A stretch of DNA of 64,000 nt from Owenia fusiformis (Eukaryota; Annelida; Polychaeta; Sabellida; Oweniidae). The notes beneath the pieces are model-generated. The model was not told where the DNA came from and ran no database searches. It saw only the letters and a list, made by a program, of their open reading frames with translations. Shown one piece after another: positions 39,442 to 59,658 of this stretch. Position numbers and translations under genes: made by a program. Location: NCBI GenBank assembly GCA_903813345.2, contig CAIIXF020000005.1:28649375-28713374 (forward strand), read 5' to 3'. Each line of letters begins with the position of its first letter. The first letter of the stretch is position 1.

Positions 39442-42400
39442 TTAGGCAGCAAGGGCAGTCTTGAAAGACAGGTTGTACTGTCCCTCCCTCAGCACGGTCA
39501 CTGGAAGGTATGGCTTGGGGGACTTTATCAGGTAGTTCTGAAAGAAAAAAATGTCATAGATTGCTCAAAATTACAAGTCTGTGAGTATAGATTCGTGGAA
39601 TTTAAGAATATCTGAACATAAAGGCCTCAAATATATTTGTAACTCTACGATTTAAAGTGTTTTTTGTTGTTCTATTTCTTTGGTGAGGTATGGACTTCCT
39701 AAACCAAGGCCATATACAAATTAATATTAATGTAAGCCGGGCAACGAAACATAAACGAAATATGTTTACCCAATCTTGGTTTCAAAGTTTTGCACTATGC
39801 ACACTTGTCACCATATATAATATATAACAACAACTTACATGTGCATACATCATGGCACTCTTTGTCTCTTGGTCAGAGGCGCCAAGACCAACCCAGACAA
39901 ATAGATCCTGAGTAGTATCAAACATGAAAACATCCTGAAAATAATTGATCACAATTTTGGTGATTTTTTCTTAGGAATACCATAGTACACTGTGGCTAGT
40001 CGATCTATGTGGATGCAGTCATTTATATGCAATGTATCGTGGGTGCTCGCCTCTGTACTTTTCAATGGAAGAATTTTGCACTTTTGTTTAAATAATGTAT
40101 ATTTACTCATCCGTGTATATCATACTTCATTGATTTACAAAACCAAAGCTATGCTATAAACACACATTCTCTGACATTTTTACGGAGAATAGATAACTCA
40201 AACGAGTTCACTCGACCAGTTTTATCATCTCGCTCATAGCTGTGAGAAGGTATGTATAATTTGCCATAGGTTTACCTTATAATGGGGAATAAAAAATTCA
40301 AGTAATATAATTATTTCACGTACACAAATATGTCTGTGTGAAGTAAAATACAAATACAATGCGTTTTTTAATATTTTTGGGGTTATGGTATGAAATATCC
40401 ACTTTAAAAAAGCGATTTAATTATGATGTATCATGTGGATTAGTAGACGTTCTTAATGGATTCAATGAACAGGCTGGCTAAGTTTTAATTGAATCATTTT
40501 TGAATGTGTGTATTTTTAATATTTTAATCCACAGTGTCCAAAAAGAATAATAGTGTTGTATTGGTAATTGGAAAGATTCCACTTACCACGATTTAAAAAA
40601 AATTGGAAATAGATAATATTATTCTTGAATTTGGGTCATTTGTTTCAAGGAATCTGTAGGCTCGTTCAGCTGAGCTGACAAAATCATCAAGATTTACGGA
40701 TGGTCCATCTGTTGGCTGCTCATTGTCACTTTTAAGAAATGTTAATGGCTCTGAAACTTGTAGCCTTGCCCAAGTCCGTATTTATTTACTTATCTGATCT
40801 TGAATTATTGTATTATTGTGCAATCCAATGCATCATCGCTGATATTATGCTAAGTAATTCAGCGGTTCCGAGATTCCCATAATACCTACGCTACCTAAGG
40901 GTATCGCGAAACCTATTGATTGACAAGATTGCATGGACACGACGTGTGACTTCAGGCTGATTGACCAATCAAAAAGTTATCTGATCTGATCGAGTATTTC
41001 TTGAAAGTTACAATATATTATGTTATTAAATGTACATTGGAATGTAAGCAGTCATTAATACTCGTATAAATGAAATCTGCAATTCAATGTTGATTCAAAA
41101 TCAAAACTGAATTCGCGATGGAAATGCACGAAGACCTAGTCCGGCGATGTAGGGCCGTCGTTGATTGGTCAAATTTCACCGACTAAAACATTGGGTCGGA
41201 AAAGCACGTGGCTTTTTCTTGGGTACAAGGCGGTCATAATAGAAATCAAGATAAGTAAAAGAGACCGACTTGGGCAATGCTATGAAGTTTGATTTGTGGG
41301 TATTCCAGTGGGGTGATGGGTCTTTGGCTCTAAATTCACTTCTTTTGCGTACCTAATTTCAACATTTTCATTGTCATCATTACATGTTATGGACCCGTTT
41401 TTCAAATTAACAGTATTAGGGATAAAACCATAGTTTTTCATCTGTAATGGCATTTTCCAGTTGATGGGTTTATATATAGTATTTTCAATGTAATGGTGTG
41501 GCTAATTACTTTACTGAATGAGGAATGTTTATCCAAACAATGAATACAAAGAAAATCTGGCCAGTTGTCCATCAGTAAATAAATCATCGTGATAAAAGTA
41601 TAATTTATTATAGCATCCATTTTTTACCGTTCTGAATCCAAATGATACATAGTAGCATCGATTTTAAACATATATGTTGACGTTTTCGAAATGTTGTTCA
41701 AATATCTTCCCTATAACAGGAATATGGTAGCTGAAACTTTCACACATTGTGATACTATGCATATTCAATATGTATGCAAGATTTCAAGTCACAATGTTAG
41801 GTAGAAACTCTGAGATCACTTACCTCGATTTGCTGTCATATTTTTGCAATGATCCCATTCCCTATAATGTACGCGAGCACCCACGATACATTGCATATAA
41901 ATGACTGCATCTACATAGATCGACTAGCCACAGTGTAGTATGAAGAATCATCCTAGGAATTACCCCAAAATGCCATGATAAAGCAGGCCTGATATTAAAG
42001 ACAATTAAAGTCATTCACCTGCACACATCAAAACATACACACGTTTCAAGTATAATGAACGATGGTCAAATTAAGAAAAGAATAATGAAGGTTCAGTTGA
42101 CCAGTGCCACAGAACCAAAGAATGACCATTCATCGGATATTTGCCACACGCCACATACCTTGGTATCGAAGTCAGCAGATGTAACATCTCCAGTCTTCTT
42201 AACATTAAACTGGACGTTTCCTGATTGATCGGACAATCTAAAGCAGATTGTTAAACAAAATCATAACGAGTTAACTTTCCTCAAACAAACTTAGTAATAT
42301 TTTTAATGATAATGTCAGACAGAACTTTGAATTTTCTTTGTGAAAAACTTGGTGAATCAGAAGATATAAATATTTCCCCTAAACAGATAGCAATTTTAAC

Positions 42401-45400
42401 TAAAATCTGAATTGGAGCAAATTAGCCAAAATCTCTCATTGGTAAGGGGTACACAAGTGACTGCTACACTAATCAAGTAGTCAAGTTAGTTCACTTACTG
42501 CATAAGTTTCTTTTCGTTATCTGCGGCGTCTGTCTTGTCATCATCATCGTCGTCATCATCTTCCTCTGGTAGGCTTATGCTTTTGTAGAACAAATGCTGA
42601 TGTAAAAATAGAAATACACTGATAAAAAAATTCAAGCACCGCAATCAATGAATTGTTGGAAATTTATTGCACGTGATTCTAGTTTCTAGTTAAGACGAAT
42701 TTTAAGGCTAGCACAATATCTCATCGGCAAAATGTCACCACTTGCCATTTGTTACAGACGCCGCGCCATGTTACAGACTCAGAACATCGAACATCAACCA
42801 CCGTTCACAAAAACTTTGGAGACTCTAACAATATGTTACACCTCAGGTGGTGACATAAAAACCTGGACAACCTTGGTCCCTTCTTTTTCACAAACATAGA
42901 AAGCACATACCTCTGGATGGAGTCTTGCTTCATCCACAGTCTGGATGACAGGCCTACCACCTCTTTCCTCTTTTAGTTTCTGTAGAAATTGTACTGCCTG
43001 GAACGTAGTAATAATTGTGTGTGATTATACATTGCGGTGGGTGTTACATATTGACATACTTTGCATTGTGTTGGTTGTGTTGTGTGGTGTTATTTTAGGT
43101 ATTTTGTGTTATGTTGTATTGGTTGTGGTTACAGTTGAGTTGCAATGTGAGGTACGATGAGTTGCATTTTTATCTCTGCTCTAACCCTTGTTTCCTCAAT
43201 CAAGGCCATCGTCCGAAATATTCCTGACCAAGGAGCCACAAGCACCTAACAATGGCTTCACACGAATATGTTCTTGCTTTTTGAACAGAGGGCAACTTAG
43301 AAAAAACAATACCATATTACGGAATCTGAGGTAATCACCTTGAATCTCTCATCTTTGTTCGAGCCTTCCCCATTCCACTGGATGATTTTCAAACCAAGAT
43401 CAAGAATAAACACATCGTCGCTCATCAGACTTTTGCGCACACGAGCTACCTAAATTAGTATTGAAAAGTATAACTTAATAAAATTGTATACATAATTATT
43501 TATGTACACTATATTTTAAAAATCTCTTAAAAGTATATTATTCCAAAGGATGTAGCTTTGTTTGATTAAATGGACATAAAAATATCATAGTAATTTATAT
43601 TAATCAGACGATGTATACCTCTTTAACTGTGATTCTCTTCTTTACACCACGGAAGTGGAAGAGTCTTGGTTCATACTCCTCTGCCTTTACGCGACGGAAT
43701 CCACTAGCAGCGCCACCTTTCAGATACCTAAAATTCACACATACGGTTATCTTTTGTTAAGACCAGAAGACGTAGTTTTGTGATTTCATCAATGGTGAAC
43801 ACACCAGCGCTTACTGTAAACCGTATCCTGGATGCAGAATATACTTATAAACTACCCCTCTTTTAGAAACGAAGTCGAAAAGGTATAGAAGCCCATCATT
43901 GGTCCAAGGGTATTTCACTTCCATTGAATTGAAAAATAAATTAAGTCTTTTCAATGAAGGCTGACAAAAGCCGGTAACCCGGACCACTCGGACCAGCAAG
44001 TGCAATCCCATTTGATCTTGAATAAGAGAGCAGTACGTCAATATATAGGTTGCATTTACACATGTCCGGACTATAAAAGACACTATGAATTCCAACCTGA
44101 TTTCATCAAAATAGCTGAGGAATAATTCCGACTCATGTCCCATCACCTCTCTGTGTTGAACTGGCTTGTCATCTAAGAACGTATCCAACTCCACGGTCTT
44201 GTAAGCAGCAGTGCCATACTCATCCTACCAGAGAATTATAAATATGTATGCACAAGTGCCAATGGGAAATGAGTCAAATGACCAAAAGTTGTTACAACAA
44301 ACCCCAACTATCCCAAACCATGATCTAACGTGAAAAAACAATGTTTATCGCACATTTATTTCTCCCCATAGATGTCAGAGAATATGCAATTAATATTAAG
44401 ACATCTCGATTCACAAGGTTCCAGTTGCTCCACGTACTTCATTGTGTTACATTATAATCTAATTATAACTACCTTGGAAGTCAAAGATGCATTTTAGACC
44501 TACTCTGTATGTTTAAATCTGGTGCAGATATCAGTTACCTGTGTGCTGTATTTTCCTATCCAGAAATGAACGTCATACTCGATTTCATCAGAGTCCTCCT
44601 TCTTGTATTGCTAAAAATAAGGCCAGTTATTTCTTTCTTATATTTCAAAACTTTTAGTGGACACTCCATTAAATAGATATGCAAAAGGGGCATAGGGTAA
44701 AAATAATTTTGAACGTTGAAGAATAACAGAATAATGCACATAAAATACTATATTTGCCATATTACTAGAAGCGATATAGTTGACCTTTATTAACATTTTA
44801 CCTCGTTACGTCGTACTACCAATGATCTATAATTGAAGATCTATAACATCGGTTTTTCTACTTTTTTACTTTTTTCTACATCTAGAAGGAGAATCTCCTC
44901 ATTCATATTGGTGCTAAGGTAGTATCAGTAGGGGTGTTAAGTTCACTCAAGCAACCGTTAGCAATACGTAACTGCTAGTTAACATCAATGAAGACGCATC
45001 ATGCACGAGAACTTACATTAAAGGAACATTCCTGGCCAAACGTTTTCTATCCTGCTGTGATAGCTATAATCATATATATATACTTTCCATATTTGGCAAA
45101 ACATGGGGAAATGTTTTAATATAGTCAATATTGATAATTTAAAAATGTAGTGCTCATTTCCAGTAAGCTGCCATCTTTTAAGATTTTACTCAGGAAGTGA
45201 TGTCATCGACTCTCAACTTTCATGCCCTTGCATATAACAGTATAGGAAAATAGCACAATATCACTTCTAGACGAGTGATCCTTACTTTATACACAAAAAC
45301 ATGTTCAGAGCTTGTCAGCTTAGAATAAAAGAAGAGACTTTTAGAAGATTTAAATCATAGACGAAATTGAAAAAGATTATTGAGCTGGTTTTGTAATTCT

Positions 45401-47109
45401 TAATAGCTCCTTATAGTGTTATATGCAAAGTTGAGAGTCGATGACATCACTTCCTGAGTGAAATATTAAAAGATGGCAGCCTACTGGAATTCGGCACTAC
45501 ATTTTCAAGTCATCAATATTGACCATATCAAAACATTTTTCCCTGTTTTGCTAAATATGGAAAGTATATATATGGTTATAGCTACCATATTAGGAGAGAA
45601 ATGGTGTGGCCAGGAATATTCCTATGTATAATATATGAATCCCCATCAAAAAAGCAACCGTAATCTTATGCTGGCCATTCGGTGATGCCAAATTTCTGAA
45701 ATGTTAGCATGATCCACAAGGTGAAATATCTAGTAAGATTACTACACACACACACGACAGTGACAGTGACGTTGTTGATATGAAATATGACGTCACACGC
45801 GCATACAATGTTAACTCAAAGAAACACCAAAAGGAGAACACCATTTGCTTTCATTAAGGGAGACATACAACAGACGGAGGACAGCAGACATATAGAGAGT
45901 GAAAGACACGGGAATTGTATTAAAACAGAGATCAGGCATGGTTAATTGTTGAATATATGATGTTATCCAATCAGCGTTCGTAGTACTAAAACAAGAAATA
46001 CTGCATACAAGACGTGTCTAGTATGAACATTTACTCGTTGTTATCAGCGATGAGATGCTAAAAGAAAACACGTTTATATTATAAGGGGCTAAGACATCAA
46101 CCAGAGCTTTGCCTTGACACACTAGTAAACTTCATCCGGGTAAGTGCACGTAGAAAACCCAGGGGTGAGTATGGTGAATGGAGCTGCGTTTCGTGTACTG
46201 GAACCATTATTTTCCTCACTACTACTTACGTTCAACACGATATATGAATCGCCATCATAGAAGGTGCCATAGTCGGGAACGGGCCAGGCTACAACCTCGA
46301 ATTTCTAGAATTTCACATGCAATACAAAATAGTTTATCATTTTAAGACAATGGACAGACTAATATCCCTGTGTTTCAGACCTATTATAATTACTAGTATC
46401 CTAAAGAATATGACAGACAAAGAAATTCTTCATTTTTATTTTCCATCCTACTGTAGCTTTACTTATTGCAGCATTTGAAAACGTAAAAGTGTAATTGATA
46501 ATTGCAATGAAATTGATTCTATATTTTGGAAATAAGTTATGAAGTTTATAATTTTTAAAAATGTGTAAATGATCTACTTGGATTCATACCACTATTCTCC
46601 AGATGTACAACGCACTCTCCCTGTTTTTATCCACTGTCGACCATGCTTGTTCGCCACTAGCAGACGTCTCTAAAATAATTACAAAATATTGTATTAAACC
46701 TGTGAACTTAAATTCCTTCTCATCATACATAATAATAAATATATTCATAGGGATCCTTCAGGGGCCGATATTAAGTTTATACTATAATGAAAATTATAGA
46801 ATAAAAACACTGGCATAGGGCATTACATAGAGTAACGATAACATTTTTGAGATTATTCGAAGGTATGGCTTTATTATACTCAAGGTAGAATGGAAGTATC
46901 ATTTTACCTTGTGAAGTCCGAAATGGAAAACTTGATTATAATTTGTTCTTTGGGATATTTGCTACTCCCCGTAGTTGCCCTTTTCTACATTACAATTGTG
47001 CCGGTCCATCAGACAAATAAACAAACTTACTTTTAACATTCTTTTCTAGGTCTGATCCGAACAAAGCTAGGTTACTGTCCTTCCAGTCATACTTCTTTGC
47101 TTTTATCAT
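39442..47109 (-). CDS. Gelsolin-like actin-severing/capping protein, copy A (three-domain), 12 coding exons
   Basis: Calcium-regulated actin filament severing and capping protein of the short (G1-G3) gelsolin type, cytoplasmic. Exons in transcript order: 47109-47031, 46669-46590, 46304-46230, 44610-44539, 44224-44097, 43727-43619, 43449-43339, 42997-42911, 42596-42499, 42237-42159, 39934-39839, 39537-39442. Phases agree and give 369 residues. G1: [53 protein letters not shown] and [18 protein letters not shown]2: [44 protein letters not shown]3: [21 protein letters not shown] linker with eight consecutive Asp residues precedes G3. The N-terminus is MIKAKKYDW, shorter than copy B because coding intron 1 and its flanks were deleted. 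An acceptor before the ATG implies a 5' UTR exon at about 49652. Confidence 0.93.
39981..41942. mobile_element. 1.96-kb TIR transposon, unit A only
   Basis: CATAGTACACTGTGGCTAGT, CGATCTATGTGGATGCAGTC and ATTTATATGCAATGTATCGT, then GGGTGCTCGC, at the left are matched inverted at 41870-41942. The arms are about 85 bases with a few mismatches. Unit B lacks the element at the same intron position (52980-53010), so it is a clean insertion after duplication or was lost from B. No transposase is recognisable. A coding-looking stretch on the minus strand at about 40621-40733 is described in the findings. Confidence 0.8.
42732..42856. mobile_element. 125-bp MITE, ATGTCACCAC family, unit A copy
   Basis: Starts ATGTCACCACTTGCC and ends GGTGGTGACAT. 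Inside, TTTGTTACAGAC, GCGCCATGTTACAGA and AATATGTTACA recur. The unit B counterpart at 53755-53876 has lost its right end at the insertion at 53880, so this MITE is older than the duplication. Confidence 0.75.
43815..43960 (-). other. Orphan exon-like segment in a gelsolin A intron
   Basis: On the minus strand a good acceptor (GGCTTTTGTCAG) precedes 146 bases that are open in one frame and read in part [18 protein letters not shown] and [16 protein letters not shown], followed by a donor (ACA/GTAAGC). In the gelsolin reading phase it would hit a stop within three codons, so it cannot be a normal gelsolin cassette. Unit B lacks it: 55590-55680 is different sequence. It may be a captured piece of another gene. 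I do not recognise the protein. Confidence 0.35.
45017..45695 (-). pseudogene. Broken alternative G1 exon of gelsolin copy A
   Basis: Homolog of the intact 75-nt exon at 57907-57981. From the acceptor at 45695 it reads KFGITEWPA, then TAA where copy B has GAA (E), then [13 protein letters not shown]. The last bases are separated from the donor (ACTTAC on the plus strand, 45011-45016) by an inverted-repeat transposon at 45020-45625. Both the stop and the insertion prevent use as an in-frame exon. The functional alternative is 46230-46304. Confidence 0.9.
45020..45625. mobile_element. 606-bp foldback MITE inside the alternative exon
   Basis: The arms begin AAGGAACATTCCTGGCCA on the left and end TGGCCAGGAATATTCCTA on the right. 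They stay similar in inverted orientation for about 230 bases, including CTTTCCATATTTGGC, GCCATCTTTTAA, and GGAAGTGATGTCATCGACTC with TCTCAACTTT. The spacer is about 140 bases. It is absent from unit B. Confidence 0.88.
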
Positions 47110-52432: not shown

Positions 52433-55400
52433 TTAGGCAGCAAGGGCAGTCTTGAAAGACAGGTTGTACTGTCCCTCCCTCAGCACGGTCACTGGAAGGT
52501 ATGGCTTGGGGGACTTTGCCAGGTATTTCTGAAAGAACAAAATATCACAGATTGCTCAAAGTTACAAGTCTGTGAGTATAGATTCGTGGAATTTCAGAAT
52601 ATGTGAACATAAAGGCCTCACATATATTTGTAACCCTACGATGAGTGTTTTTTGTTGTTCTATTTCTTTGGTGAGGTACAGACTTCCTAAACCAAGGCCA
52701 TACACAAATTATCTATCGCTGTAAGCCGGGCAACGAAACACAAAAGAAATATTTTTACTGATTTTTGGACTGTCAACTTCGACATGTTGTCACGAGACAC
52801 ACCAAATCTTGGTTTCATTGGTTTCACAGTTTTGTACTATGTACACTATTCATCATATCTATAATATATAACAACAACTTACATGTGCATACATCATGGC
52901 ACTCTTCTTCTCTTGGGCAGAGGCGCCAAGACCAACCCAGACAAATAGATCCTGAGTAGTATCAAACATGAAAACATCCTGAAAAGAATTGATCACATTT
53001 TTCCCAAAAATGCCAAGACAATGTAGTCCTGATGTTAAAGACAGTCAAAGTCATTCTACTCCACACATCAAAACTTACACACGTTTAAAGTACAATAACC
53101 AATGATCAAATTGAGAAAAAATGAAGGCCCTTGTTGATCAGCGCCACAAAAACGACCTAGACCGACCATTCATCGGATATATCTCACACGTCACATACCT
53201 TGGTATCGAAGTCAGCAGATGTAACATCTCCAGTCTTCTTAACATTAAACTGGACGTTTCCTGATTGATCGGACAATCTAAAGCAAAATGTCAAACGAAA
53301 TCATAACGAATTAACTTTCCTTAACCAAACTCATATATATTTTCAATGATAATGTCATACAGAACTTGGAATGTTCTTTGTGAAAAACTGGTGAATGCGG
53401 ACAGCAATTTCAACTAAAATTTGATTGGAGCAAACTAGCAAAGATTTCTCATTGGTAAGGATTACACCCTGACAAGTACTATACTCTTGTAGTCAAGTAA
53501 GTTCACTTACTGCATAAGTTTCTTTTCGTTATCTGCGGCGTCTGTCTCGTCATCATCATCGTCGTCATCATCTTCCTCTGGTATGCTTTTGTAGAACAAA
53601 TGCTGAACGGTAAAAATAGAAATACATTGATAAAAAATTCAAGCACCAATCAATGAATTGTTGGAAATTCATTGCACGTGATTCTAGTTTCTAGTTAAGA
53701 CGAATTTTAAAGCTAGCATATTAAAATGGGTGTAAAATATCTTATATGAAAATTGTCACCATCTGCCATTTGTTACAGACGCCGCGCCATGTTACAGAAT
53801 CAGAACGTCGAACATCAACCACTGTTAACAAAAACGTTGGAGACTCTAACAATATGTTACACCTCAATTGATAACCCTACTATCACACCAAACTAGTTCT
53901 CACTACGTTCTCGAAAACGGGCTTCAACTGTGTACGTACGGACTGGACGAACTTAGAACCGTTTGAGGTATATTTACAAACTTCATCGAACGTACTCGAA
54001 CAGGTAGGTCCTCTAGAACTAACATGCTCTAAATGTTCTCTTGGTAGTCAAAACTGGTTTTACTGTGTGCGAACGGAATGAACGTAGCTACAACGTTCTA
54101 CGGTCTGTTTTGATGGCGACCATACCGTTCTGTAATCAGGTCATGATGACCTTCTAGACTAAGGGACGCGTTATACGACGTTGCACACCGACGTGGTGCG
54201 ACCTGAACGAACTGCGAACGAGATGAACGTATTGAAGACTGTTTATGAACGAAGTAGCTAATTATTTTAGACATATTTCCTGACCACAGCCAGATTAAGC
54301 CAGTTTTACGACGTTTTCGTAAGACTTGCAAGAACGGGTAAGAACTAGTTTGGTGTGATAGGGGGTTTACATAAAAACCTGGACAACATTGGTTCCTTCT
54401 TTTTCACAAACATAGTAAGCACATACCTCTGGATTGAGTCTTGCTTCATCCAGATTCTGGGTGTCAGCCTTACCACCTCTTTCTCCTTTTAGTTTCTGTA
54501 GAAATTGTACTGCCTGGAACGTAGTAATAATTTTATGTGATTACATTTCGTTGGGTGTTACATATACTTTGCATTGTGTTGGTTGTGTTGTGTGGTGTTA
54601 TTTTAGGTATTTTGTGTTATGTTGTATGAAGATAATCTATTTGTAAAAAAAGTTGAGAACAAGCCCTTCAAAGTGCTTCTTTTATTTAAAAAAGACGATC
54701 CTCCAAGTTAAAACAAAATGCTTAATCCATTGAGAAAAAATGTCTTCTAAATTCAGAAAAAATATTGAGGCTTATTTGATTCACATTATAACATTAAAAA
54801 AACATTATTATACAGACTCTCAATTTGTTTTCCTAATATACACCCATAATACTGAAAATAAACTTGGGAACGAGATGTCTTGGGTAAGAGTTGACTAGGA
54901 AGCGTAACGGCCATCATCTTTTACAATTGACGTTACAGTTGAGTTGCAATGCGAGGTCCGATAAGCTGCAATTTTATCTCTGCTCTACCCCTTGTTTCCT
55001 CAATCAAGGCCATCGTCTGAAATGTCCCTGACCAAGGAGCCACAAGCACAATGGTCTCACACGAATATGTTCTTGCTTTTTGAACAGAGGGCAACCGAGA
55101 AAAAACAATACCATATTGCGGAATTTGAGAATACTTACCTTGAATCTCTCATCTTTGTTTGAGCCTTCCCCATTCCACTGAATGATTTTCAAACCAAGAT
55201 CAAGAATATACACATCGTCGCTCTTCAGATTTTTGCGCGTACGTGCTACCTAAATTAGTTTTGAAAATTATCATAATGACATTGTAGACATAATTATTTA
55301 TACATGTATACACTATCTTTTAAAAATCTCTTAAAAGTATTATTCCAAAGTGTGTAGCTTTGTTTGATTTAATGGACATAGAAATAAGCTATCATTGTAA

Positions 55401-58400
55401 TTTAATAAATTTATACTTATCGGACGATGTACCTCTTTAACAATGACTTTCCTTCCTTTACCATGGAAGTGGAGGAGTCTTGGTTCATACTCCTCTGCTT
55501 TTACGTGACGGAATCCACTAGCAGCGCCACCTTTCAGATACCTAAAATTCACACATACGGATATCTTTTGTTAAGACTTGTAAAAAGACGTAGTTTTGTG
55601 TTTTTATCAGTAATCAACACACCATTTATTACTGCATAAAACAAAATAAAAGTACAATGCATGATGCCAATACATGATGTTGCATTTACAAACCTCCGGG
55701 CTAAAATACACTATGAATTCCAACCTGATTTCATCAAAATAGCTCAGGAATAATTCCGACTCATGTCCCATCACCTCTCTGTGTTGAACTGGCTTGTCAT
55801 CTAAGAACGTATCCAACTCCACGGTCTTGTAAGCAGCAGTTCCGTACTCATCCTACCAGAGAATTACAAATATGTATGCACAAGTGCCAATGGGAAATGA
55901 CCAAAAGTTGTTACAACAAACCCCAACTATCCCAAACCGTGATCTAACGTGAAAAAATAATGTCTATTGCCAGATTGCACATTTATATCTCCCGATAGAT
56001 GTCAGAGAATATGCAATTAATATCAAGATATCTTGATTCACAAGGTTTCAGTTGCTCACCTTGGAACTCGAAGATGCATTAAAGACCCACTATGTTTAAA
56101 TCTGGTGGAGATGTCAGTTACCTGTGTGCTGTATTTTCCTATCCAGAAATGAACGTCATACTCGATTTCATCAGAGTCCTCCTTCTTGTATTGCTAAAAA
56201 TAAGGCCAGTCATTTCTTTCTTATATTTCGTCACTTTTAGTGGAGAGTTCATTAAATAGATATGCAGAAAAGGGGCATAGGGTAAAACTAAATATCAATT
56301 TGAACGTTGAATAATAACAGAATAATGCAGATTAAATATTGTATTTGCCATATTACTAGAAGCGATATCTTTGACCTTTATTAGCATTTTACCTCGTTAC
56401 GTCGTACTACCAATGATCTATAATTGAAGATCTATAACATCGGTTTTTCTACTTTTCTACTTTTTGCTACATCTAGAAGGAGAATATCCTCATTCATACA
56501 AGGGCGTTACAATACCCGGGAATTAATCGGTTTGTGCAGTACATGTTTGTGATAGCGCCCTCTGCAGGCCACTGCGGTTATTAGGGTGTAGCAAGGGAAA
56601 GATCAATACCCGGTGATTTCAGCGGGAAGTGGCGTTTCGTTCATTGGATGAGCTGCGCGCGCACGCATAAATGTGATTATCCAATATAATAAGGGGAGGG
56701 CTATTTGAAGTAGTTTTTGGTGTCAGGCGCGACCCAGGGCTGTTGTCTTAAGGACATTTCGTTGAAAATGAGCCATTCGGCTGATAATTGGTAAGAGTTT
56801 GCGATCTTATAATGTATAACTGTTACTCAGACACATATTTTGACACGATTCTGTTGGAAATAAGCTTTGAACCGAGAGATATTCACGATTGATATGCACA
56901 TTTTTGATTGTGCCATTGCTTTTCTATTGCACAACCCATGTATAGAAGAAACATTAATAATACAGATTGGTTTACCTTCAATACATGGCAGACACTACAT
57001 ATCGGTCTATTAATACCAGTTTGTGCCTTAAATAGTTTTATATTTCCATCCACGGCCTGGAGCCTGGGTGTGTTTGTCTCTTATGTGTATGCTTGTGCAT
57101 GGACTTCTAATCACTAGCAGAATTTAACATGATGCAAACTCGACATTATAACTCATGCTGTAACATTTTGACTTCGCTGGAAAACAAGAGGAATTATTTT
57201 TCTTGCCAATCAATCATGAATCACAATCAAAATTTCAGAATGATCAATCAGGCAATGATCCAAATCAAGTGATAACATTATATGATATTCAGCAAGAAGT
57301 CCGGTAGAAATACAGAATATTTAAACATCAAAGCTGAAAGTTAAAATCTAATCTGTCAATTTTCTGTCTGCAAAAGAGCGTCCCAAGAGCGTTTACATTT
57401 GACACAATAACAGACTGAGGCCTTGAAATCTAGGATTCCCCAGGAAAATATGACGTCATACTAATTAGCATAAGGATTTCCCTATTGGGGTGGGTCGAGC
57501 CTTGTTCGAAAACACAATCCATAAATACATGCTAATTTCTAAGGAGATAGGAAGTGTATAACGTGTTTATCGATTTTGTTTAAAGATTTAATCAATTATC
57601 AAATTGTTTAAGTGGATAAAGTGGTCACACTTGCTTCAATTCATAGCGAAATCGACGGATAGAAACTGACCGAATTCCCGATATCCTACCCCGTATTACT
57701 GTAGGCTATAAGCACAGTGACCTACAGAGGGCGCTATCACAAACAAGTACTGGACGAACCGATAAATTCCCGGGTATTGTAACGCCCTTGATTCATATTG
57801 GTGCTGAGGTAGTATCAAAAGGGATGTTAAGTTCACTCAAGCAACCGTTAACAAAACGTAACTGCTAGTTAACATCAATGAAGACGCATCATGCACAAGT
57901 ACTCACATTCAGTATAATATATGAATCCCCATCAAAAAAGGAACCGTAATCTTCTGCTGGCCATTCTGTGATGCCAAATTTCTGAAATGTTAGCATGATC
58001 CACAAGGTGAAATATCTAGTAAGATTACTACACACACACACGACAGTGACAGTGACGTTGTTGAAATGAAATATGACGTCACACGCGCATACAATGTTAA
58101 CTCAAAGAAACACCAAAAGGAGAACACCATTTGCTTTCATTAAGGGAGACATACAACAGACTGAGGACAGCAGACATAGATGGAGAGTGAAAGACACGGG
58201 AATTGTATTAAAACAGAGGTCAGGCATGGTTAATTGTTGAATATATGATGTTATCCAATCAGCGTTCGTAGTACTAAAACAAGAAATACTGCATACAAGA
58301 CGTGTCTAGTATGAACATTTACTCGTTGTTATCAGCGATGAGATGCTAAAAGAAAACAAGTTTATATTAATAAGGGGCTAAGACATCAACCAGAGCTTTG

Positions 58401-59658
58401 CCTTGACACACTGGTAAACTTCATCCGGGTAAGTGCACGTAGAAAACCCAGGGGTGAGTATGGTGAATGGAGCTGCGTTTCGTGTGCCGGGACCATTATT
58501 TTCCTCACTACTACTTACGTTCAACACGATATATGAATCGCCATCATAGAAGCTGCCATAGTCGGGGACAGGCCAGGCTACAACCTCGAATTTCTAGAAT
58601 TTCACATGCAAAAGAAATAGTTCATCATTTTAAGACAATGGACAGACTAATATCCCTGTGTTTCAGATCTATTAAAATTACTAGTATTCTAAAGAATATG
58701 ACAGACGAAGAATTCTTCATTTTTATTTTTCATCCTACTGTAGCTTTAATTATTGCAGCATTTGAAAACGTAAAAGTGTAATTGAATAATTGCCATGAAA
58801 TTGATTTTATATTTTGGAAATTTTTAAAAATCTGTAAATGATCTACTTGGATTCATACCACTATTCTCCAGATGTACAACGCACTCTCCCTGTTTTTATC
58901 CACTGTCGACCATGCTTGTTCGCCACTAGCAGACGTCTCTAAAATAATTATAAAACATTGTATTAAGCCTGTGAACTTAAATTCCTTCTCATCATACATA
59001 ATAATAAATATATTCATAGGGATCCTTCAGTGGCCGATATTAAGTTTATATTATAAAGAAAATGATAGAATAAAAAACACTAGCCTAGATAGAGCCACGA
59101 TAACATTTTTTGATTTTTCGAAGGTTTTATTATACTCAAGGTAGATTGCAAGTGTCATTTTACCTTGTAAAGTCCGAAATGGAAAACTTGATTATACTTT
59201 GTTCTTTGGGATTTGCTTCTCCCTGGAGTTGGCCTTTTCTACATTACTATTGTGTCGGTGCATCAGACAAATAAACAAACTTACTTTTAACATTCTTTTC
59301 TAGGTCTGACCCGAACAAAGCTAGGTTACTGTCCTTCCAGTCATACTTCTTGGCTTTTCTCAGACCTTTTCCTGTAATAGGAAAATCACAAAAGTCACAA
59401 AAGTAACAAATAATGAAAACAAGTAATAAAATAAACAAACAGTCGTGTCCCAAATTCTTCAAATGATTTGCACTGACAAGAGGTAAACTAACTAGGCAGC
59501 AGTAATGATTAGACACAATTGAATCATAATTATATTTTATCGCATCTAACAGGTGAAGATAATTTTATGTTAAAAACAAGGCACTCTCTATGCGAAGAAC
59601 AATAATTTCTTAACTCAGTCCTGTTGGTATAGAAGTTGTTTACAGTCTTACCTGGCAT
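52433..59658 (-). CDS. Gelsolin-like actin-severing/capping protein, copy B (three-domain), 13 coding exons
   Basis: Paralog of copy A with the fuller gene structure. Exons in transcript order: 59658-59652, 59371-59285, 58938-58859, 58593-58519 (or the alternative 57981-57907), 56193-56122, 55852-55725, 55541-55433, 55249-55139, 54513-54427, 53602-53511, 53277-53199, 52978-52883, 52528-52433. Phases agree and give 372 residues with either alternative exon. The N-terminus is [15 protein letters not shown]1 spans about 45-170, G2 about 175-250 and G3 about 275-360, with [20 protein letters not shown] in G3. An eight-Asp linker precedes G3, two codons shorter than in A. Typical length is 360-380 residues for annelid and mollusc short gelsolins. 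Role: calcium-dependent severing and barbed-end capping of actin, known for the family and inferred here. Confidence 0.94.
53755..53876. repeat. ATGTCACCAC-family MITE, unit B copy, right end lost
   Basis: The unit B counterpart of 42732-42856, from TTGTCACCATCTGCC to TATGTTACACCTCA. The right terminus GGTGGTGACAT is replaced by the insertion at 53880-54361. Confidence 0.7.
53880..54361. mobile_element. 482-bp MITE with perfect 21-bp TIRs
   Basis: CTATCACACCAAACTAGTTC plus T at 53880 is exactly inverted at 54341-54361. It is absent from unit A and nested in the older MITE, so it is younger than the duplication. The interior is rich in ACGTTC/GAACGT-like words (TACGTTC, GAACGTA, CGTTCTCG), giving many small internal palindromes. 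No coding region. Confidence 0.85.
56499..57790. mobile_element. 1.29-kb TIR transposon, unit B only
   Basis: CAAGGGCGTTACAATACCCG and GGAATT at the left, with matching inverted sequence at the right end, give arms of about 78 bases that include TTGTGATAGCGCCCTCTG. The 7-bp ATTCATA is duplicated on both sides (56492-56498 and 57791-57797), and unit A has the uninterrupted CATTCATATTGG. Inside, after a short GC-richer tract, ATGAGCCATTCGGCTGATAA is followed by a donor GTAAGAG, which looks like a 5' exon of a lost transposase. Confidence 0.88.
57907..57981 (-). CDS. Alternative G1 exon of gelsolin copy B
   Basis: A 75-nt, phase-0 exon flanked by an acceptor (AACATTTCAG) and a donor (GTGAGT) that encodes [25 protein letters not shown] (25 residues). 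It matches the upstream exon at 58519-58593 at 17 of 25 residues, including W, P, DYG and DGDSY. Each version fits between the exons at 58859 and 56122 without changing frame, but using both would duplicate a strand of the G1 fold. The pair is therefore best read as mutually exclusive. The DGDSY stretch lies where gelsolin G1 has a calcium-binding Gly-Asp. Confidence 0.85.

What the first reader, a model, noticed from the sequence alone, without database searches (positions are those of the whole stretch)
57907..58593. Mutually exclusive exon pair in a gelsolin G1 domain
Two adjacent 75-nt phase-0 exons (58593-58519 and 57981-57907) encode homologous 25-residue segments, identical at 17 positions. 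Both have good splice sites and fit the same flanking exons. Each would give a complete 372-residue protein; including both would duplicate a core strand of the fold. The differing residues (EVVA/GITE, VP/AE, Y/F) flank the DGDSY segment near the G1 calcium and actin surface, so the choice may tune calcium response or actin binding. I know of no described exon pair of this kind in gelsolins.
Basis: partly seen in the sequence, partly recalled or inferred. Interest (0 to 1): 0.82.

Follow-up and report, generated by a model that had tools for sequence, protein, structure and literature searches.

The report
Swappable exons in gelsolin's first domain
A gene for a small actin-cutting protein in an unnamed invertebrate carries two alternative versions of one 25-residue piece of its actin-gripping domain, apparently chosen one at a time by a known splicing switch, so that one gene could make two differently tuned actin cutters.

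Summary
Both were long kept by selection (pS 0.91, pN 0.23). (1) A younger tandem gene copy keeps 4a, but its 4b is destroyed by a stop codon and a repeat insertion; its G1 stays constrained, so 4a alone suffices. (2) The RBFOX site TGCATG occurs on the gene's sense strand exactly twice, 11 nt before 4a and 11 nt after 4b, as expected for suppressing 4a and promoting 4b (chance 3e-5 to 1e-4); an RBFOX gene is present. (3) The intron between them is the least diverged of 12. (4) A paralogue on another contig has a different exon pair in the same domain, where joint inclusion would shift the frame. No transcripts could be examined, and a worm precedent (unc-32) cautions about the direction of the downstream site. 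The calcium reading is weak; an effect near the actin-binding loop is likelier.

The parts
52433..59658 (-). Gene copy 1: three-domain gelsolin-like (fragmin/severin-type) protein, 14 exons including both 4a and 4b, 372 aa per isoform
   Evidence: gene model; three PF00626 stretches in each isoform; residues 47-367 align with gelsolin, residues 6-163 with fragmin P
58519..58593 (-). Exon 4a, 75 nt, phase 0
   Evidence: copy 2 differs at 3 of 75 nt, one of them amino-acid-changing
57907..57981 (-). Exon 4b, 75 nt, phase 0
   Evidence: 17/25 aa identity to 4a, pS 0.91, pN 0.23
58605..58610 (-). TGCATG (RBFOX site) 11 nt upstream of exon 4a, within its acceptor region; present in copy 2 at 46316-46321, also 11 nt upstream
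57890..57895 (-). TGCATG (RBFOX site) 11 nt downstream of the end of exon 4b; present in copy 2 at 45000-45005
57982..58518 (-). Intron between 4a and 4b, 537 nt, the least diverged of 12 introns compared between the gene copies (9 of 534, 1.7%); carries a TG repeat upstream of 4b
58859..58938 (-). Exon 3, upstream flanking exon, ends in phase 0
56122..56193 (-). Exon 6, downstream flanking exon (72 nt), starts in phase 0
39442..47109 (-). Gene copy 2: tandem duplicate, 369 aa, first intron missing, can use only exon 4a
46230..46304 (-). Copy 2 exon 4a, intact (24/25 aa)
45627..45695 (-). Copy 2 exon 4b remnant: in-frame stop, and interrupted near its 3' end by a repeat element of about 0.6 kb
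45012..45625 (-). Repeat element with terminal inverted repeats of roughly 190 bp, inserted in copy 2 exon 4b (edges approximate)
   Evidence: this place and 39 others at 91-97% identity among 40 scored of 1166 first-look candidates

Best explanation
Exons 4a and 4b are a mutually exclusive pair of homologous exons. Each encodes one version of the betaB-to-betaC stretch of the first gelsolin domain (G1) of a three-domain protein of the actin-severing or capping family. SHOWN from sequence: two intact, long-selected, interchangeable exons; a tandem gene copy that has lost 4b but kept a constrained G1; TGCATG sites 11 nt before 4a and 11 nt after 4b, with none elsewhere on the sense strand of the gene. 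INFERRED: by default the spliceosome takes 4a. Where an RBFOX protein is active, it binds over the 4a acceptor and blocks that exon, binds after the 4b donor and promotes that exon, and so switches the message from 4a to 4b. The switch leaves the Gly-Asp pair and the helix in exon 7 alone, changes strand betaB next to the actin-binding betaA-betaB loop (for example E61 against G61 at the place of gelsolin Asp50), and so would alter activation or actin grip. After the gene duplicated, copy 2 became fixed as a 4a-only gene.
For: Exon anatomy and open reading frames. 4a/4b: pS 0.91, pN 0.23, so both were under selection for a long time. Copy 1 against copy 2 in residues 8-160: 7 synonymous and 1 non-synonymous change, dN/dS 0.033, although copy 2 has lost 4b through a stop codon and a repeated element. 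Paralogues on C4, C7 and C9 show one exon at this place in the stretches fetched. TGCATG: 2 sense sites in 7226 nt of gene, both here, 2 of the 28 exon-flank 30-mers examined. In 20,000 shuffles each hit had p 0.0054 and 0.0058, product 3e-5, and both occurred together in 1e-4 of them. Both sites are kept in copy 2, although bases at 58612, 58614 and 58623 beside the upstream one changed. An RBFOX-type RRM is in the genome: three exon matches on C9:4004842-4007447 at 79%, 67% and 80%. RBFOX bound upstream causes skipping and bound downstream causes inclusion (PMC5840707, passages). Worm RBFOX proteins repress the acceptor of the upstream exon of the egl-15 pair through an upstream UGCAUG (PMC3585155, passages). 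The inter-exon intron diverges least of 12: 9/534 against 84/1168 in four clean introns, Fisher p = 8e-7; scan p = 0.007 within the block.
Against: No RNA evidence was available, so exclusivity and tissue choice are unproven. Including both exons keeps the frame, so nonsense-mediated decay would not enforce the choice. In worm unc-32 a UGCAUG in the intron after the SECOND exon (7b) is needed to select the FIRST (7a) (PMC3585155, passages); by that precedent the site after 4b could favour 4a, so the direction of the switch is less sure than its existence. TGCATG is a 6-base motif found after looking; the window as a whole is not enriched for it (31 against 43 expected). The low divergence of the inter-exon intron could be a local gene-conversion patch; against the adjacent intron alone p is 0.03 and against the two exons 0.10. 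No relatives of this species were held, so conservation outside this genome is untested. One report (PMC10676425, passage) did not find mammalian gelsolin among RBFOX2 targets, though it cites an earlier one that found RBFOX1 acting on it.
Confidence: 0.68

Rival explanations
1. The two exons are mutually exclusive but the choice is not RBFOX-driven; another factor, for example a CELF-type protein on the TG repeat upstream of 4b, or plain acceptor competition, decides.
For: A TG repeat lies in the inter-exon intron upstream of 4b and is kept in copy 2. In worm unc-32 a CELF protein acts from a UG-rich element in the intron between the exons (PMC3585155, passages). Neither acceptor has a long pyrimidine tract (by eye).
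Against: The TGCATG pair is placed as the general RBFOX rule requires, at 3e-5 to 1e-4 by chance. TG repeats are common.
Confidence: 0.32
2. Exon 4b (or 4a) is a cassette or remnant: one exon is used almost always and the other is a relic with no function.
For: Copy 2 shows that 4b can be lost; no transcripts were seen.
Against: Copy 1 4b has no stop, intact splice sites and 68% identity after synonymous sites saturated. Its distance to the C4 exon at non-synonymous sites (pN 0.27) is close to that of 4a (0.22).
Confidence: 0.12
3. Both exons are normally included together, giving a 397-residue protein with a duplicated strand.
For: The joint reading frame is open and the inter-exon intron has normal splice sites.
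Against: Copy 2 cannot include an intact 4b and its G1 is still under strong constraint. C4, C7 and C9 paralogues show one such segment. The PDB gelsolin chains and villin whose alignments were shown match with one segment.
Confidence: 0.04
4. Exclusivity is enforced mechanically, by pairing RNA structures, a branch point too near a donor, or U2/U12 incompatibility.
For: Splice-site incompatibility and short donor-to-branch-point distance are known for some human pairs (PMC5740500, passages).
Against: Best intron-intron duplexes are no stronger than in shuffles (12 to 16 of 20 shuffles as strong or stronger), fold z-scores are +0.8 and +0.5, the AG-free stretch before 4b is 32 nt, the inter-exon intron is 537 nt and all sites are GT-AG.
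Confidence: 0.06

Closest known systems
Mutually exclusive tandem-duplicated homologous exons (surveys PMC9741552, PMC5740500, PMC4465641; passages only)
   Same: Adjacent exons of equal length and phase, homologous, under long purifying selection, swapping one segment of a fold
   Different: Host gene: gelsolin/GSN occurs 0 times in the main text of the first two and once in the third, for a different N-terminus
C. elegans egl-15 5A/5B and unc-32 7a/7b, RBFOX-controlled exon pairs (PMC3585155, passages)
   Same: UGCAUG upstream represses the acceptor of the upstream egl-15 exon, as proposed here for 4a; unc-32 has a UGCAUG in the intron after its second exon, as here after 4b
   Different: Here both kinds of site flank one pair. 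In unc-32 the site after the second exon serves selection of the first, opposite to the direction proposed here
Fragmin P / severin / CapG (three-domain gelsolins)
   Same: Three gelsolin repeats; the N-terminal extension aligns with fragmin P from residue 6
   Different: No paired G1 exon is known to me in these genes (recall)
Vertebrate gelsolin under RBFOX1 (cited in PMC10676425, passage)
   Same: RBFOX reported to act on a gelsolin transcript
   Different: The event there was not examined here; RBFOX2 experiments in that paper did not find it

Membership tests
Mutually exclusive homologous exon pair | Adjacent exons, clearly homologous | tested here: met
   17/25 aa, genome-wide E 2.4e-6
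Mutually exclusive homologous exon pair | Same length and phase, valid splice sites, either fits the flanking exons | tested here: met
   75 nt, phase 0, GT-AG, open frames
Mutually exclusive homologous exon pair | Both exons kept by purifying selection | tested here: met
   pS 0.91, pN 0.23
Mutually exclusive homologous exon pair | Joint inclusion breaks the frame | tested here: not met
   75+75 nt keeps the frame; common but not required in the class, so one safeguard is missing. It is met for the C4 pair of 128-nt exons
Mutually exclusive homologous exon pair | Transcripts hold one or the other, not both | not testable with these tools
   no RNA data held
Three-domain gelsolin family (fragmin/severin/CapG type) | Three gelsolin repeats and no more | tested here: met
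   three PF00626 stretches in each isoform, 131 and 129 bits
Three-domain gelsolin family (fragmin/severin/CapG type) | Actin severing or capping activity, calcium-controlled | not testable with these tools
   sequence only
RBFOX-regulated exon | (U)GCAUG close to the exon on the side that fits the direction of control | tested here: met
   11 nt upstream of 4a and 11 nt downstream of 4b, sole TGCATG sense sites in the gene; four further sense GCATG without the leading T lie elsewhere in the gene
RBFOX-regulated exon | An RBFOX protein in the organism | tested here: met
   RRM exon matches on C9:4004842-4007447
RBFOX-regulated exon | Binding and splicing response shown | not testable with these tools
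   needs CLIP, knockdown or minigene

The most novel reading that the evidence does not exclude
In this lineage the first gelsolin domain is a repeated target of exon swapping. One paralogue (window, C5) swaps strand betaB to betaC (exons 4a/4b). Another (C4) swaps the actin-binding helix (exons 7a/7b, 128 nt each, joint inclusion shifts the frame). Both may be switched by RBFOX, so that a small gene family yields several tissue-tuned actin-severing enzymes, and gene duplication is now splitting the two forms apart, copy 2 being fixed as 4a.
Probability: 0.43. Interest if true: 0.68.

Novelty: new member of a known kind. Interest (0 to 1): 0.56.

Why it matters
G1 is the part of gelsolin that binds and, with its neighbours, severs and caps actin. 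A gene that swaps part of G1 by splicing would be a natural mutagenesis experiment on how strand betaB and the betaA-betaB loop set activation. The tandem gene copy that lost one exon offers an in-genome comparison of an alternatively spliced gene and its fixed single-form sister. If RBFOX drives the choice, actin severing would join the set of muscle or neuron programmes controlled by this splicing factor in invertebrates.

Tried and rejected
Rejected: RNA-structure-enforced exclusivity (duplexes and folds no better than shuffles); branch-point crowding (537-nt intron, AG-free stretch of 32 nt before 4b); a third exon-4 copy in the gene (next-best score 17 or less against 106); other places in the genome holding the exon-pair DNA (only the two gene copies found). 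A processed copy that would prove a spliced message was not seen: no near-identical match crosses the joins of exons 3-4-6 (matches running past an exon edge there were read-through into introns or the 53%-identical C9 gene). Relatives in other species could not be searched, because the collections held are prokaryotic, viral or plasmid; a phage search gave nothing. The species was not identified: 498 Mb with large contigs C1-C12 recalls the annelid Owenia fusiformis to me, from memory only.

Rows left out of counts: of 11 other introns compared with the inter-exon intron, 4 without large insertions were pooled for the Fisher test (i2-3, i3-4a, i6-7, i13-14); the seven dropped all diverged more (12.9 to 42.5% as aligned), so dropping them is conservative. 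Against the one adjacent intron alone (12/264) p is 0.03; against the two exons together (6/144) p is 0.10, not significant. In one search the stop codon of copy 2 4b was left out of the codon count.

The chance figure for the two motifs now gives both the product (3e-5) and the joint count (1e-4).
Full report
OBSERVATION. On the minus strand, exon 4a (58593-58519) and exon 4b (57981-57907) read [25 protein letters not shown] and [25 protein letters not shown]: 17 of 25 residues and 47 of 75 bases identical. All splice sites are GT-AG and the flanking exons are in phase 0. Using either exon gives an open protein of 372 residues, using both gives 397. Pfam finds three gelsolin repeats in each isoform. 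Residues 47-367 align with gelsolin domains 1-3 and residues 6-163 with fragmin P, so this is a fragmin/severin-type three-domain gelsolin.

THE PAIR IS OLD AND BOTH MEMBERS WERE KEPT. Between 4a and 4b, 14 of 15.3 synonymous sites differ (saturated) but only 14 of 59.7 non-synonymous sites. A relic exon would not stay open and 68% alike over that time. The corresponding exon of a paralogue on contig C4 is about equally far from both (16 and 14 of 25 residues; pN 0.22 and 0.27). The exon duplication may therefore be about as old as that gene split, though 25 residues cannot resolve the order.

A SECOND GENE COPY IN THE WINDOW. At 47109-39442 lies a tandem duplicate, 369 residues, lacking the first intron. 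It is young (overall dS 0.07). Its 4a is intact with one amino-acid change. Its 4b has an in-frame TAA and is broken near the 3' end by a repeat element of about 0.6 kb with inverted terminal repeats. That element is present at 39 other scored places at 91-97% identity; 40 of 1166 first-look candidates were scored. Despite this, residues 8-160 show 7 synonymous and 1 non-synonymous difference between the copies, dN/dS 0.033. The 4a-only copy has therefore remained a constrained gene, unless 4b was lost very recently. This argues against a requirement for both exons together, and suggests a gene duplicate resolving the alternative into a fixed single form.

REGULATORY SIGNATURE. TGCATG, the RBFOX site, occurs on the sense strand of the 7226-nt gene exactly twice: 58610-58605, 11 nt before exon 4a, and 57895-57890, 11 nt after exon 4b. 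Among the 28 exon-flank 30-mers of the 14 exons these are the only two hits. In 20,000 dinucleotide shuffles the two hits had probabilities 0.0054 and 0.0058 (product 3e-5) and came together in 1e-4 of them. Copy 2 has the same two sites, also its only two sense sites, and bases beside the upstream one changed while the motif did not. The genome has an RBFOX-type RRM in three exon matches on C9. The published rule is that RBFOX upstream causes skipping and downstream causes inclusion (PMC5840707, passages). Worm RBFOX proteins repress the acceptor of the upstream egl-15 exon through an upstream UGCAUG (PMC3585155, passages), which is the arrangement at 4a. Against this, in worm unc-32 a UGCAUG in the intron after the second exon is needed to select the first exon (same paper), so the site after 4b might act either way. 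By the general rule both sites predict one switch, 4a to 4b.

THE INTRON BETWEEN. Of 12 introns compared between the copies, the one between 4a and 4b diverges least: 9 of 534, against 84 of 1168 in four clean introns (Fisher 8e-7), and scan p 0.007 within the collinear block. Against the adjacent intron alone p is 0.03. This fits splicing control elements. A local gene-conversion patch is not excluded; the two exons themselves differ at 3/75 and 3/69, which a patch covering them would not predict, but that contrast is not significant (p 0.10). RNA-structure mechanisms found no support.

WHERE THE SWAP FALLS. Aligned to gelsolin, residue number here minus 11 gives the gelsolin number (alignment, mapped). 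The eight differences are then at gelsolin 50, 51, 52, 53, 56, 57, 63 and 70. PMC5368644 (passages) puts 47-49 in the betaA-betaB loop, which it names as an actin-binding region, and Asp50-Val52 in betaB, with Asp50 in contact with His29, the residue that dominates pH activation. Here position 50 is E in 4a and G in 4b. Gly65-Asp66 are unchanged in both, so a direct calcium-site effect is unlikely. That Gly65 and Asp66 are calcium ligands is recalled; the passages mention Asp66 only for its place in the fold.

A SECOND, DIFFERENT PAIR. The C4 paralogue has one exon 4 but two copies of the exon-7 equivalent: 7a at C4:16313370-16313243 and 7b at C4:16312453-16312326. Both are 128 nt with GT-AG splice sites, with 31 of 42 residues shared, pS 0.96 and pN 0.18. 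128 is not a multiple of 3, so joint inclusion shifts the frame. Each is slightly closer to exon 7 of the window gene (34 and 35 of 42) than to the other, so this duplication could predate the split of the two genes, the window gene having lost one. By the numbering the exon covers helix alphaA and strand betaE; that alphaA is the main actin contact is recalled, while the passages place Gln107, Asp109 and Asp110 at the actin interface. Three TGCATG sites lie within 63 nt, 490-552 nt after 7b, among 17 in the 35.1 kb examined, suggestive only. The genes on C7 and C9, six-domain-like by the order of their matches, show single exons at both places in the stretches fetched.

LITERATURE. Searches on gelsolin with mutually exclusive exons, alternative splicing in annelids or molluscs, earthworm actin modulator, exon duplication, and severin listed no paper on such a pair; I saw listings and abstract beginnings, plus the passages cited. 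Two human surveys do not mention gelsolin in their main text (PMC9741552; PMC5740500), and a third mentions it once for a different N-terminus (PMC4465641). Human GSN stands in a table of tumour-associated cassette exons (PMC2941758, passage). PMC10676425 (passage) reports that an earlier study found RBFOX1 mis-splicing of mammalian gelsolin, which its own RBFOX2 data did not show.

VERDICT. A real, functional-looking mutually exclusive exon pair in a gelsolin: a new member of a known kind, with a second pair in a paralogue and a specific, testable control mechanism. Transcript proof is missing and the direction of the switch is open.

Noticed in passing
G000 C4:16313370-16313243 and C4:16312453-16312326 (within L024): The C4 three-domain gelsolin paralogue has its own tandem exon pair (7a/7b, 128 nt each) covering the actin-binding helix; joint inclusion would shift the frame.
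   Followed up: partly
G000 C4:16311774-16311836 (within L024): Three non-tandem sense TGCATG sites within 63 nt, 490-552 nt downstream of exon 7b of the C4 paralogue.
   Followed up: no
window 39442-47109 against 52433-59658: Between the tandem gene copies, domain 1 is nearly unchanged (1 non-synonymous, 7 synonymous) while domains 2-3 show 30 non-synonymous and 8 synonymous changes. Of 13 residue differences in exons 8-9, the C4 paralogue agrees with copy 2 at 5 and with copy 1 at none, so copy 1 seems to have changed.
   Followed up: partly
window 47109: Copy 2 lacks the first intron of copy 1; the short first coding exon and start of exon 2 are replaced by a new junction after ATG.
   Followed up: no
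window 39935-42158: The intron before the last-but-one exon in copy 2 is about 2 kb longer than in copy 1 and its extra sequence has inverted ends by eye, so probably another mobile element.
   Followed up: no
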